From the NCBI GenBank assembly GCA_017645655.1, contig JAGCNZ010000071.1, positions 1-35,722 of the forward strand: a stretch of DNA of 35,722 nucleotides, in the 5' to 3' direction. Source of the stretch: Bacteroidaceae bacterium (GTDB taxonomy: Bacteria > Bacteroidota > Bacteroidia > Bacteroidales > Bacteroidaceae). The notes below the pieces were generated by a model, which was not told the DNA's origin, did not search any database, and saw only the letters and a list, made by a program, of their open reading frames with translations. Made by a program: the position numbers and the translations under genes. Positions 9,833-35,031 of the stretch are shown one piece after another. How positions within the stretch are numbered: position 1 is the first letter of the stretch; each line of letters begins with the position of its first letter.

Positions 9833-9947
9833 CACGGGATAAATTCATTTTACCCACGTGATATTTGAAATATTACACGTGATAATTTCATTTTACCCAC
9901 GTGATAATTTTATTTTAACCTCGTGACGTTTTTCATTTATCCACGCG
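9833..9947 (+). repeat. Phased CACGTG array, copy A
   Basis: Sites begin at 9833 (CACGGG), 9855, 9876, 9898, 9920 (CTCGTG) and 9942 (CACGCG). The spacings are 22, 21, 22, 22 and 22. The 21-base step holds the near-palindrome ATATTTGAAATAT; the other spacers read approximately ATAAATTCATTTTACC. It lies between the divergent fimbrial operon and gyrB, in the gyrB sense orientation. The outer sites have decayed, the inner three are exact. Confidence 0.85.
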
Positions 9948-10310
9948 CCGTTTGCAATTGTCGCCCATTTACCCGACCATCTCATCTCGGGACGAAAGTT
10001 GCAGAAATTGCAATTTTTGGCCATTTCATCGATTGAAATCACTCATTTTGAGAAGTAATGACTGGGAGTTACGCAAAGCCTTTTGTAAAGATTTTTACAG
10101 CGAACCTGGCGACGCAGACCGGAATGATTGCAATCGGCAAATGGAATCATTCCTGGTGCGATATAGGGGGACGCCTCTTCTCAAATATGACGCAAAATGG
10201 CTTCACCTGCCAGTCAAAGTCGCCATTCTGAGGTCGCAGCAGGAGAAAACTGCCCGAAAGGAACGAAGCGCAGTCGGAAAAGTGACTCCAGAGGCGGTTT
10301 TTCTTCCCCA
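9948..10310. other. Gene-poor region upstream of gyrB
   Basis: I see no supportable gene here. An open plus-strand frame (9952-10371) crosses the gyrB promoter and has an unconvincing composition. The region contains an inverted repeat GGAATGATT (10121-10129) with AATCATTCC (10145-10153), a 9-bp stem with a 15-base loop that could fold in either transcript. The rest holds no recognised element. Confidence 0.5.
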
Positions 10311-10315
10311 TTTGC

Positions 10316-10346
10316 TTGCAAATGTGGAAGAATTGTTGTACCTTTG
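10316..10346 (+). promoter_or_regulatory. gyrB promoter
   Basis: TTG at 10316-10318 and TACCTTTG at 10339-10346, spaced by 20 bases, match the Bacteroidota -33/-7 promoter. Transcription would start around 10350-10353, leaving a leader of about 30 bases before the gyrB start at 10381. Confidence 0.75.
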
Positions 10347-10380
10347 CACGGAAAAACTAAGAATCACCTAACTAAACTCC

Positions 10381-32313: not shown

Positions 32314-32348
32314 CACCTGATTTGAGCAAAAACCTAAACTATACGACT

Positions 32349-33275
32349 ATGAACTTGAAGAAAGTCTTCACATGCCTTGCCGGCCTTGCGCTCGGCCTGC
32401 TCTTCTGCCAGACGGCTGATGCGCAGGACGACGTCATCACGGTGCGCATGCTGACATACAACATCCATCACGGTGCGGGAACGGACGACGTGGTAGACCT
32501 GGACAGGCAGGCAGCAGCCATCGGGCAGGCCGATGCAGAGGTCATCGGACTGCAGGAAGTGGACAGCTGCGTGAAGCGTTCGGGCTACATCCCCGAGGCG
32601 GCCATCCTCGCCGACAAGCTCGGCATGTACAGCACCTTCGGAGGAGCCATCCCTCTGACCGGAGGAAAGTACGGCGTCGCCATCCTCAGCAAGGAACCTC
32701 CACTGGCCGTACACCACATGCCGCTGCCCGGAACGGAGAAGAGGACACTGCTCGTCTGCGAGTTCCAAGAGTACGTCTTCGCCACCACACACCTCGACCT
32801 GAACGAAGACAGCTGCATCGCCTCCCTTCCCATCATCCTGGAAGAGGCTGCCAGCTGGGGCGAGAAACCCTTCTTCATATGCGGCGACTGGAACAGCGAG
32901 CCTACCTCGACAGTCATCAGGACGATGAAAAGCAACGGCTTTGTCATGCTGAACTACCCTGCAAACATCAACAGCACGCACTACACCTTTCCTGCCGCCA
33001 GCCCGAAGAAAATCATAGACTACATCGCCAGCTACGGCAGGGTGACCAGGTCCATCAGGAAGCGCGAGGTCATCAACGAGCCGGTTGCATCCGATCACCG
33101 TCCCGTGATGGTCGAGGTCAGACTCAATTCCTACACGACCGGCGTCTCGTCTCTGTCGGCACAGGACGAGAGCATGCAGGACGAGGTGTACGACCTCACA
33201 GGAAAGAAGATGGGACACGGCGCTTTGCAAAAAGGACTATACATCAAAAACAGACGAATACACGCAATTAAGTAA
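32349..33275 (+). CDS. Secreted endonuclease/exonuclease/phosphatase family protein
   Basis: The start at 32349 gives 308 residues with a type I signal peptide (MNLKKVFTCLAGLALGLLF, cleavage after ADAQ). The EEP fold is marked by LTYNIHHGAG (35-44), IGLQEVD with metal-binding Glu70, CGDWNSEP near 177-184 and SDHRPVMVEV near 247. These provide the metal- and phosphate-binding residues of DNase I-like phosphodiesterases; the substrate may be nucleic acid, a phospholipid headgroup or a sugar phosphate, which cannot be told here. The C-terminus (VYDLTGKKMGHG then LQKGLYIKNR) resembles the short tail of many secreted Prevotella proteins, related to Por-type sorting domains. The stop overlaps the next start by one base. 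Confidence 0.88.
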   Translation: MNLKKVFTCLAGLALGLLFCQTADAQDDVITVRMLTYNIHHGAGTDDVVDLDRQAAAIGQADAEVIGLQEVDSCVKRSGYIPEAAILADKLGMYSTFGGAIPLTGGKYGVAILSKEPPLAVHHMPLPGTEKRTLLVCEFQEYVFATTHLDLNEDSCIASLPIILEEAASWGEKPFFICGDWNSEPTSTVIRTMKSNGFVMLNYPANINSTHYTFPAASPKKIIDYIASYGRVTRSIRKREVINEPVASDHRPVMVEVRLNSYTTGVSSLSAQDESMQDEVYDLTGKKMGHGALQKGLYIKNRRIHAIK

Positions 33276-34846
33276 TGAGACCATTCGCACTCCTCGCACT
33301 GCTTGCCTGGGCTTGTCTCTGCCCGGCACAGACACCTCGAGACGCCTGCACCAGCATCATGGTGGGCAAGAAAGCCTCCGCCGACGGGTCGGTCATGACG
33401 AGCCACACTTGCGACTCGTGGTACCGCACCTGGATGAGCATCGAACCAGCCAAGGACTATCCGCGCGACACCATCATGAGCATCTACGAAGGACTGATGC
33501 ACACCGAGAGCCATGGCGACATGACGGGGGTGAAGGAGCGCGGCACGATACCGCAGGCACGCCACACCTACCGCTTCCTCAACACGGCATACCCTTGCCT
33601 GAACGAGAAGCAGCTGGCGATGGGAGAGACTACCATTAGCGGTCGCGACACGCTGCAGAACAAGGCGGGACTTTTCATGATTGAGGAGCTGCAACGCGTC
33701 GCCCTGCAACGCTGCACGACTGCTCGGCAGGCCATCCGCCTCATGGGCAGCCTCATCAAGCAGTATGGCTACGGCGACAGCGGCGAGTGCCTGACCATCG
33801 CCGACCAGAACGAAGTGTGGATCTTCGAGGTGTTCGGCGAAGGACCGAAGCAAATAGGAGGTGTATGGGCAGCACAGCGCATCCCGGACGACGAGGTGGC
33901 AGTCAGCGCGAACATCTCCAGAATAGGCAGGCTCGACCTCGACGACATCGACCACTTCATGGCATCGGACAACGTTTTCAGCGTCGCTCGGCAACTGGGT
34001 CTGTGGGACGGCAAGGAGGAATTCTCGTTCTGGAAGGCTTACTCGGGCGGCAACTATTTCGGCGAGCCGAAGAACTACAGCGTGCGCGAGCTTTTCATCA
34101 TGCAACAGCTTGCTCCCGAGGCGAATTTTACCGATGAAATGGGCGAATTACCACTCTCGGTGAAGCCGAAAGAGAAACTCACCGTGGCTGGCGTTTCGAG
34201 ACTTTTGGGCTCTTATTATGAAGGAACAGACTTGAGTCTTTCGTGCCGAATTGACTCCCTTGCGAAGGGTAATGGCGAGGTGAAACTGAAGGGAGGTAAG
34301 CCGCTCATCAGCAATCCGTGGATGCGCCCCGACGAGATTCGTCGCTATGCAGGGCTGCTGAACGACTCGACGATGCAGAACATCCGGACCGTCAGCGTGT
34401 CGTGGTGCGCCTACAGCACAGTGATTCAGCTGCGTTCGTGGATGCCCGACGACATCGGCGGCGTGGCGTGGATTGCGCTCGACAACCCGGGGCAGTCGCC
34501 TCGCTTCCCAGTCTTCTCGGGAAACACTGAACTGCCCATGATGCTCGGTGTCTGCGGTCAACACCGAAAAAGGGACGATGCAGCACTCTGGCACTACCGC
34601 GAGGCGAACCGAATTTCGTCGATGAAATGGGGACAAACGCGCGAATCGCTGCAGAAAGCCCAACAGTATTTTCTCGATAAAGCCGAGCGAGAACAACCCT
34701 TCGTGGAGCAGACCTGGTGGAACACCGACGAGAAGCAGCGGACAGCCTTCCTGAACGGTTACACTGCCGACTTCTTCAGCGCCACCATCGGCCGCTGGGA
34801 CGAACTGGCGAAGAAATACTGGAGACAGTTCTGGTCGGGCTTCTGA
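33275..34846 (+). CDS. C69 family dipeptidase
   Basis: This 523-residue peptidase has a signal peptide (MRPFALLALLAWACLCPAQT) and then DACTSIMVGKKASADGS. In the C69 (PepD) family the conserved cysteine of the DxCTS segment becomes the N-terminal nucleophile after processing, here Cys25. Further family segments are GLMHTESHGDMTG, GETTISGRDTLQN and the middle DSGECLTIADQNEVWIFEV. It probably cleaves dipeptides in the periplasm or at the cell surface, fitting peptide use in this genus. Start and preceding stop overlap (TAATG), so it is translationally coupled to the EEP gene. Confidence 0.92.
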   Translation: MRPFALLALLAWACLCPAQTPRDACTSIMVGKKASADGSVMTSHTCDSWYRTWMSIEPAKDYPRDTIMSIYEGLMHTESHGDMTGVKERGTIPQARHTYRFLNTAYPCLNEKQLAMGETTISGRDTLQNKAGLFMIEELQRVALQRCTTARQAIRLMGSLIKQYGYGDSGECLTIADQNEVWIFEVFGEGPKQIGGVWAAQRIPDDEVAVSANISRIGRLDLDDIDHFMASDNVFSVARQLGLWDGKEEFSFWKAYSGGNYFGEPKNYSVRELFIMQQLAPEANFTDEMGELPLSVKPKEKLTVAGVSRLLGSYYEGTDLSLSCRIDSLAKGNGEVKLKGGKPLISNPWMRPDEIRRYAGLLNDSTMQNIRTVSVSWCAYSTVIQLRSWMPDDIGGVAWIALDNPGQSPRFPVFSGNTELPMMLGVCGQHRKRDDAALWHYREANRISSMKWGQTRESLQKAQQYFLDKAEREQPFVEQTWWNTDEKQRTAFLNGYTADFFSATIGRWDELAKKYWRQFWSGF

Positions 34847-34909
34847 AAACCTTTAACTAAACAGCCTGGCCCGACACAAACCAGGGCTTTCGCGGCGAGC
34901 AGGCAGCAT

Positions 34910-35031
34910 GAATTTTCAAACGCGGCACGTGATGTCTGAAATTTACCCACGTGATAAATTCATTTTACCCACGTGATATTTGAAATATTACACGTGATAT
35001 TTTCATTTTACCCACGTGATGTTTGGAATTC
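34910..35031 (+). repeat. Phased CACGTG array, copy E
   Basis: Exact CACGTG sites begin at 34926, 34948, 34970, 34991 and 35013, with spacings of 22, 22, 21 and 22. The 21-base step contains ATATTTGAAATATTA. The ends pair as GAATTTTCAAAC (34910-34921) and GTTTGGAATTC (35021-35031). It lies about 64 bases after the C69 dipeptidase stop in the sense direction and is the best preserved copy. Confidence 0.88.

What the first reader, a model, noticed from the sequence alone, without database searches (positions are those of the whole stretch)
9833..35031. Unrecognised family of intergenic arrays with CACGTG phased every 22 bp
Five intergenic regions (9833-9947, 13837-13971, 16751-16861, 24102-24233, 34910-35031) hold five to seven CACGTG or one/two-mismatch sites. 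The start-to-start distances are almost always 22, with one 21 in each copy. Two helical turns separate neighbouring sites, so all palindromes face the same side of the helix. Spacers are AT-rich and conserved (approximately ATAAATTCATTTTACC), in sharp contrast to the GC-rich genes. Such regularity in five places within 25 kb is hard to explain by chance. Candidates are a binding platform for a dimeric or oligomeric protein, a family of structured RNAs (CACGUG is self-complementary, so neighbouring units can form alternative hairpins), or a small non-autonomous mobile element. CACGTG is also the core of ParB-parS sites, but the flanks here do not fit the known 16-mer.
Basis: partly seen in the sequence, partly recalled or inferred. 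Interest (0 to 1): 0.88.

Follow-up and report, generated by a model that had tools for sequence, protein, structure and literature searches.

The report
Species-specific 22-base phased repeat lattice
Many gaps between genes, and a few gene interiors, in these gut bacteria carry short arrays of mirror-symmetric DNA units repeated about every 22 bases; related species keep the spacing and sometimes the place but rewrite the letters, which points to an unrecognised DNA-level function or copying process.

Summary
This genome (2.74 Mb, 84% complete) has roughly 150 arrays of the CACGTG family. CACGTG is only this species' version. The conserved thing is a 22-bp lattice with a mirror axis every 11 bp. 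Period 22 dominates intergenic tandem arrays in this genus and in part of Prevotellaceae/Bacteroidaceae, but not in stretches from 15 other Bacteroidales families or E. coli. Four close relatives carry an array in the same murE-mraY gap with different units. Two protein-coding sites, an M16 peptidase linker and an MnmG loop, carry in-frame arrays whose units differ between species. Ten equal-length M16 linkers share one register, and identity between species is as high at a shift of 22 bp as at homologous columns. The two linker families tested recur many times in their own genomes and are absent from 12 and 17 of 20 genomes. This is concerted evolution of a phased DNA lattice. It fails tested defining features of CRISPR, RAYT-type REP, BrickBuilt, Rickettsia palindromic elements and parS. 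Best mechanism: a binding lattice for a cooperative symmetric DNA-binding protein, homogenised by copying between loci; the protein is inferred, not found.

The parts
9833..9947 (+). Array 1, six sites, between a divergent gene with a DUF3575 match (7917-9458 -) and gyrB (10381-12354 +)
13837..13971 (+). Array 2, seven sites, between convergent recO (13006-13803 +) and ftsZ (14013-15323 -). The orthologous gap is 7-29 bp without array in L103-L107
16751..16861 (-). Array 3 between the gene at the ftsQ position (16876-17616 -, no Pfam match, named by position only) and ftsA (15356-16699 -). Arrays of other units in L104 and L105; 10-22 bp gap in L103, L106, L107
24102..24233 (-). Array 4 between murE (24232-25683 -) and mraY (22785-24050 -). 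L103-L106 each have a 22-bp array here with different units; 30 more distant loci have none
30639..30733 (-).
30094..31329 (-). M16 peptidase gene (PF00675 + PF05193) that carries array 6
34910..35031 (+). Array 5 between a C69 peptidase gene (33275-34846 +) and a convergent ORF (35171-35722 -, no Pfam match)

Best explanation
SHOWN: the arrays belong to a class of short tandem lattices, period 22 bp with a mirror axis every 11 bp, found mostly in intergenic DNA and occasionally in frame inside genes, in this genus and in part of Prevotellaceae/Bacteroidaceae. Period, axis register and some locations persist between species, while the unit letters are replaced and, for the two coding families tested, shared by many places within a genome (concerted evolution). 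INFERRED: because symmetry and helical phase are kept and transcript strand does not matter detectably, the lattice most likely works as duplex DNA, as a row of half-sites on one face of the helix for a cooperative, symmetric DNA-binding protein (a nucleoid or chromosome-organising factor, or a factor acting near gene ends). Sites are homogenised within a genome by copying between arrays in register (ectopic conversion or short templated replacement), so protein preference and array letters drift together in each lineage.
For: Period: arrays at 22 bp vs the most at any other period 17-26: own 38 vs 3, genus stretches 23 vs 2, L134-L182 28 vs 6 (each of those two includes one run of N in L151); other families 1 vs 1, E. 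coli 0. Intergenic lag-22 z: own 28.1, L103-L106 9.9, L134-L182 19.0, 15 other families 0.9, E. coli 0.4. Symmetry: best dyad 6.2-6.4 of 8 vs 5.4-5.6 after permuting unit columns, four groups of 29, 20, 53 and 19 arrays. M16 linker, 10 species: fraction complementary 0.49-0.66 at axes 33,44,55,66,77,88,99 and at most 0.41 at every other position tested from 28 to 105; pairing at A axes 0.58 vs shuffled 0.47, maximum of 2000 shuffles 0.54. Cross-species identity 0.519 at shift 0, 0.503/0.516 at +-22, 0.16-0.32 at the other shifts; within-array lag-22 identity 0.78; the shared axis phase ranks first in 8 of 10 linkers and second in 2. Families: L310 linker array at least 59/60/47/29 matches in 4 genomes, 1-3 in 4, 0 in 12 of 20; L325 linker array 15/14 in two, 1 in one, 0 in 17 of 20. 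MnmG loop: of 30 orthologues fetched, the 11 with 85-100% identity carry an array and the 19 more distant ones do not. In this species variation in the central spacer is concentrated on its mirror axis (17 of 40 variant, neighbours 0-3).
Against: No binding protein was identified. One genome can hold several unit types, which a single-specificity protein does not predict. The pooled unit-to-unit covariation (57 of 84 both-sided changes complementary, null one third) comes mainly from this genome's copied family (40 of 47); it is weak or absent elsewhere (11/20, 2/5, 4/10, 0/2). In the Prevotellaceae MAG G126 the second axis is not free but fairly conserved. Related species are not independent, so the shuffle test overstates significance. 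Copying in register is inferred; I saw no donor-recipient event. Outer units of this species' arrays are not closer to relatives' units than inner ones, against a simple inside-out replacement model. In 5 of 11 sampled genomes lag 22 is not the strongest lag, and in G003 it is absent.
Confidence: 0.45

Rival explanations
1. Selfish dispersed repeat (REP/MITE-like): arrays are copied to new sites by a transposase or hairpin-processing enzyme, land in gaps and tolerated protein loops, and have no host function; the period is the size of the unit.
For: Near-identical copies at many loci (98% over 106 bp); presence/absence with short clean gaps in relatives; presence in the MnmG loop in one clade only; nearness to stop codons (median 42 bp vs 116 bp to the next start), as recalled for REPs; G118 elements with inverted ends.
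Against: Ends are least conserved in this species; no Y1_Tnp (PF01797) found in this 84% complete genome; shared loci with replaced units in one register; the same 22-bp period for unrelated units across genera.
Confidence: 0.25
2. Mutational satellite: slippage duplicates 22-bp units, template switching at quasi-palindromes perfects the mirror symmetry and recombination spreads variants, without selection. 22 bp reflects the geometry of the enzymes involved (for example rolling copying of a roughly 22-nt self-complementary circle).
For: Explains symmetry and period independent of sequence, several types per genome and phase kept across type changes.
Against: Persistence in frame at the same two coding sites across species; some positions conserved across species (CACG and GCC.ACG columns); variation in this species concentrated on one symmetric position.
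Confidence: 0.15
3. RNA element: arrays act in transcripts as hairpin rows for 3' end formation, stability or attenuation.
For: RNA folding z-scores -2.4 to -4.1 for the five intergenic window arrays and -3.9 for L104's; closeness to stop codons.
Against: z only -0.8 for L105's array; no significant strand preference (17 vs 9); G-U not above A-C (33 vs 29); hairpins every 11 nt cannot coexist; a rigid period is not needed for RNA; no Rfam match in the window other than a tRNA.
Confidence: 0.1

Closest known systems
BrickBuilt minisatellite-MITE of Porphyromonas gingivalis (PMC4596501; abstract parts and passages seen)
   Same: Bacteroidales, intergenic, tandem units of about two helical turns (23 nt) without spacers, dispersed in the genome, species-restricted
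   Different: 19 copies in ATCC 33277, leader and tail with inverted-repeat ends, always intergenic, 23 nt. Here roughly 150 arrays of one family, no fixed ends, 22 bp with mirror axes, also in coding DNA, units replaced between species at the same locus
Rickettsia palindromic elements (review PMC10969869, passages seen)
   Same: Palindromic repeats inserted in frame in unrelated genes, several families, thought compatible with protein structure
   Different: Those are about 150-bp elements each encoding a conserved peptide. Here a tandem lattice, mostly intergenic, whose peptide differs between species because the DNA unit differs
REP/BIME with RAYT (defining features recalled)
   Same: Lineage-specific palindromic extragenic repeats, near gene ends, high copy number
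   Different: Rigid tandem 22-bp period; no Y1 transposase found in the genome
Plasmid iterons and parC/sopC-type centromere arrays (recalled)
   Same: Phased repeats spaced near whole helical turns, bound by cooperative dimers
   Different: Many chromosomal loci, units not constant across species, no cognate protein known
Eukaryotic centromere satellites (PMC4053949; search listing and start of abstract only)
   Same: Arrays kept in kind while their sequences evolve rapidly
   Different: Megabase-scale arrays; here about 70-300 bp at many sites

Membership tests
CRISPR array | Identical repeats separated by unique spacers | tested here: not met
   Spacers between CACGTG are themselves repeated within and between arrays
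REP/RAYT | Y1 (HUH) transposase in the same genome | tested here: not met
   PF01797: 0 matches in G000, which is 84% complete; the search rang in 5 of 14 control genomes
MITE / BrickBuilt | Conserved terminal inverted repeats bounding each copy | tested here: not met
   Spacer pairwise identity is 0.85 in the centre and falls to 0.25-0.26 five to six units out, over 40 arrays of this species. Elements with inverted ends do exist in the relative G118
MITE / BrickBuilt | Target-site duplication at insertion | tested here: inconclusive
   Short empty gaps in relatives; no duplication obvious by eye, no systematic test made
Rickettsia palindromic element | Element carries a conserved peptide reading frame | tested here: not met
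   Ten M16 linkers encode different peptides from lattices in one register
parS | 16-mer TGTTNCACGTGAAACA (recalled) | tested here: not met
   Array flanks TTACC-CACGTG-ATAAA differ at 6 of 16 positions from the recalled TGTTTCACGTGAAACA, compared by hand; one ParB_N match in the genome
Iteron-like protein-binding array | Cognate DNA-binding protein | not testable with these tools
   No protein identified
Known structured RNA | Match to an Rfam family | tested here: not met
   Only a tRNA at 12760-12831 in the window

The most novel reading that the evidence does not exclude
These bacteria maintain a genome-wide, helically phased DNA lattice, with mirror axes every 11 bp, that is rewritten in register at many loci in each lineage, strongly enough to dictate the peptide of protein loops. 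That would be a bacterial counterpart of rapidly turning-over satellite DNA coupled to a co-evolving binding protein, and a new class of chromosomal system.
Probability: 0.35. Interest if true: 0.95.

Novelty: new variant of a known kind. Interest (0 to 1): 0.85.

Why it matters
Bacterial repeats are usually described by sequence. Here period, symmetry and sometimes place are conserved while sequence is not, so sequence-based repeat searches would miss the class. It offers countable natural replicates (many loci per genome, many species, two coding sites under a reading frame) to test how concerted evolution works in bacteria and what reads a two-turn lattice. It also shows DNA-level repeats shaping protein loops in a protease and in the tRNA-modification enzyme MnmG.

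Tried and rejected
Chance: rejected. Assembly artefact of MAGs: unlikely, since 22-bp arrays also occur in the isolate Hoylesella marshii (G124; of 6 hits, 2 were runs of N and were discarded) and, sparsely, in Palleniella muris (2 hits). Phage or plasmid origin: no match to array 5 in 72,556 plasmid records; in viral contigs 61 stretches match the CACGTG triple, one place each, in a collection the tool describes as 2.9 million contigs, which looks like chance level though I computed no expectation. Lag-11 of the palindrome score as independent evidence: rejected, because column-permuted controls give nearly the same value. Outer units as fossils of an ancestral type: not supported. Promoter/terminator scan: the sigma-70-like hits inside the arrays read as consensus coincidences (GTGATA...GATAAT), and that promoter type may not fit this phylum (recalled). 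The first pattern tried in the own genome found nothing because its spacer was wrong. Literature: 9 searches of the open-access library; among the papers they listed none is recognisable as describing such arrays, BrickBuilt being nearest. The lists were capped, so this is no proof of absence from print. PMC4060949: passages only, nothing on 22 bp.

Not done: metagenome scan, strain-level comparison, structure prediction, systematic search for a binding protein, Bacteroides proper (G128 gave only four contigs of about 1 kb, not analysed; L182 alone, lag-22 z 2.0).

Contrary or limiting details: among the other-family stretches one (L193) has lag 22 as its top lag at z 2.9 and one period-22 array was counted. 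The array finder used for non-CACGTG arrays misses the window's own array 4 because of its 21-bp unit, so counts for this genome by that method are low. Matches are not loci: some places are counted on both strands, each includes the queried gene itself in its own genome, and only 40 candidates were scored in most of the rich genomes.

Rows dropped: L197 (a script stopped on it; left out), L151 left out (runs of N), L304-L307. One search examined the 30 best-scoring of 125 genomes with an M16 match (139 searched); one search examined 30 of the 59 genomes with an MnmG match (61 searched). Searches used 10 of the 14 array-bearing M16 linkers (L313 is identical to L312; L315, L324, L325 are 171 nt). 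L105 and L330 carry the same linker and were counted once. Contigs of G000 were chosen among contigs with hits; several stretches of G083, G027, G117-G120 and G126 were also on contigs known to carry CACGTG triples, so array densities are not unbiased.
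Full report
WHAT WAS CHECKED. The five intergenic arrays exist at the stated places, with CACGTG sites 22 bp apart, one 21 in each and an additional 20 in array 2. 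The window lies in a Bacteroidales genome (G000, 2.74 Mb, 130 contigs, 84% complete); the closest named records are Bacteroidaceae/Prevotellaceae/Bacteroidales MAGs, several of whose titles name ruminant gut samples. Genome-wide there are 284 triple-CACGTG matches against 0 for the reversed pattern and 96 exact copies of the central unit, roughly 150 arrays. Of 44 sampled arrays 42 are intergenic. Among gaps of at least 100 bp they occupy 28 of 76 tandem, 7 of 15 convergent and 5 of 29 divergent gaps; in tandem gaps they are nearer to the upstream stop (median 42 bp) than to the downstream start (median 116 bp).

ANATOMY IN THIS SPECIES. Forty arrays aligned on the 21-bp central unit show a graded element. 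The central spacer is 8% GC with 85% pairwise identity; outward, identity falls to about 26% and GC rises to 43-52% over about five units on both sides. Within the central spacer the 40 copies vary at the mirror axis TTT-N-AAA (17 of 40 non-consensus) and hardly at the other positions (0-3), chi-square p about 1e-12. Orientation relative to flanking tandem genes is 17 same, 9 opposite, p 0.17.

THE LETTERS ARE NOT THE POINT. Only 22 of 101 genomes of the genus, own included, carry the CACGTG triple; the reversed control hit 3. Yet lag 22 is the strongest intergenic autocorrelation between 5 and 60 in 6 of 11 sampled genomes of the genus including this one, in the pooled relatives L103-L106 (z 9.9) and in the pooled L134-L182, mostly Prevotella-type genomes (z 19.0); in L107-L133 it is second (z 7.9). 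Nineteen stretches from 15 other Bacteroidales families give z 0.9 pooled and an E. coli K-12 stretch 0.4; one of the nineteen alone has lag 22 on top at z 2.9. Counting arrays by period from 17 to 26, 22 dominates inside the clade (38, 23, 9, 6 and 28 arrays against at most 3, 2, 2, 2 and 6 at any other period) and not outside (1 against 1; E. coli 0). In five stretches of about 20 kb from each of four close relatives there are 15, 13, 21 and 11 arrays with many unit types (CACGTG, TAACACGTTA, ACCTTAAGGT, CTGCAG, TACATGTA, AAGCRCGGGGCGCTT), several types per genome, and phase kept when an array changes type (L210, L225); lag 22 is the top lag in all four. A Prevotellaceae MAG (L168, G126) has 136 CACGTG triples with a different second palindrome, CCAATTGG. 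Units are mirror-symmetric beyond column-permuted controls in four groups. Isolates are thinner: Palleniella muris 2 arrays in 100 kb, Hoylesella marshii 4 after discarding two runs of N, lag-22 z 4.0 and 2.8.

SAME PLACE, NEW LETTERS. Between murE and mraY the four closest relatives with that gap (L103-L106, mraY 96, 95, 92, 89% identical) have a 22-bp array with entirely different units; of 30 more distant loci examined, 21 have gaps under 60 bp and 9 have longer gaps without a period-22 array. The ftsQ-ftsA gap has arrays in the window, L104 and L105, but is 10-22 bp in L103, L106 and L107. The recO-ftsZ gap has an array only in the window and is 7-29 bp in L103-L107. So arrays are gained or lost, and where retained their units are replaced.

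INSIDE GENES. A sixth array lies in the linker of an M16 peptidase. Of the 30 best-scoring orthologues (125 of 139 genomes have a match), 14 have lag-22 identity of at least 0.63 in the linker, 3 have 0.49-0.51 and 13 have 0.37 or less, including all 8 with under 67% protein identity. In 10 equal-length array-bearing linkers the cross-species identity is 0.519 at homologous columns, 0.503 and 0.516 at a shift of one unit, and 0.16-0.32 at other shifts; units within a species are 0.78 identical and the flanks 0.71 across species. Complementarity peaks at every 11th base of the shared coordinate system, 33 through 99, and exceeds all 2000 column shuffles at the A axes. These species are related, so the shuffles are an optimistic control. 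The second coding site is a loop of MnmG/GidA. Of 30 orthologues fetched (59 of 61 searched genomes match), the 11 with 85-100% identity have 102-147 nt loops with lag-22 identity 0.51-0.66 (other lags averaging 0.21-0.30) and differing units; the other 19 have lag-22 identity 0.09-0.41, the highest in two 51-nt loops, and two of them have long loops without lattice. Against solved MnmG chains the array-coded residues 133-155 of this species' protein fall at one point, residue 154 of chain 3cp2_A (E. coli, recalled), that is, an insertion. Coding period-22 arrays are rare: 2 in 368 kb of own coding sequence, 2 in 630 kb of the genus, 0 in the other groups.

GENOME-WIDE HOMOGENISATION. The linker array of L310 has 59 and 60 matches in G051 and G027, 47 in G069, 29 in G072, 1-3 in four genomes and 0 in 12 of 20. 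That of L325 has 15 in G012, 14 in G024, 1 in G069 and 0 in 17 of 20. Some places are counted on both strands, and in the rich genomes only 40 candidates were scored except in G072. So a copy inside a protein gene shares its family with many other places of the same genome. This was tested for two linkers only; in this species the M16 array is of another type than the main CACGTG family.

MECHANISM. Shown: phased symmetric lattice, positional persistence at some loci, concerted sequence turnover. Inferred: function at the level of duplex DNA and a cooperative symmetric binding protein. Transcript-level signals are absent or weak although the window arrays fold better than shuffles. The alternatives that this is selfish or purely mutational are not excluded and carry about 0.4 of my belief in sum.

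NOVELTY. It fails tested defining features of CRISPR, RAYT-type REP, BrickBuilt-type MITE, RPE and parS. It resembles BrickBuilt (two-turn minisatellite, passages read) and RPEs (in-frame palindromic repeats, passages of a review read). I rate it conservatively as a new variant of dispersed bacterial repeats; the bolder reading is in the section on the most novel reading.

Noticed in passing
window 35076-35110; also directly left of arrays at L059:4044, L059:14382, L068:6662: A separate repeat, GCGCACTAAAAGG(T/C)GCGACTTGGTGCTAA..GCATCC, abuts the array in 3 of 40 sampled arrays and lies downstream of array 5.
   Followed up: no
window 22723-22756, 25686-25735, 31620-31690: Other short tandem repeats with 7-, 18- and 8-bp periods; lags 7-9 are also raised in intergenic DNA of several genomes of the genus, and relatives fill dcw gaps with short-period repeats.
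   Followed up: partly
L318 M16 linker: One relative's M16 linker holds a different palindromic repeat (CCCTCCCTTAAAGGGAGGGAG type) in place of the 22-bp lattice, suggesting the linker accepts several repeat classes.
   Followed up: no
G030, G031, G034, G081, G099, G158: In six relatives the M16 protein is matched as two overlapping pieces with one TGA inside the first.
   Followed up: no
window 13006-25683: recO and the dcw cluster (ftsZ, ftsA, mraY, murE and neighbours); gap lengths between its genes differ between close relatives, largely through repeats.
   Followed up: partly
L213, L214 (G118): Hairpin-like elements of about 90 bp with ends TTGTTTGCA/TGCAAAC enclosing alternating TACATGTA-like and GCAATTGC palindromes, three copies in 100 kb: a version of the lattice with clear inverted ends.
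   Followed up: no
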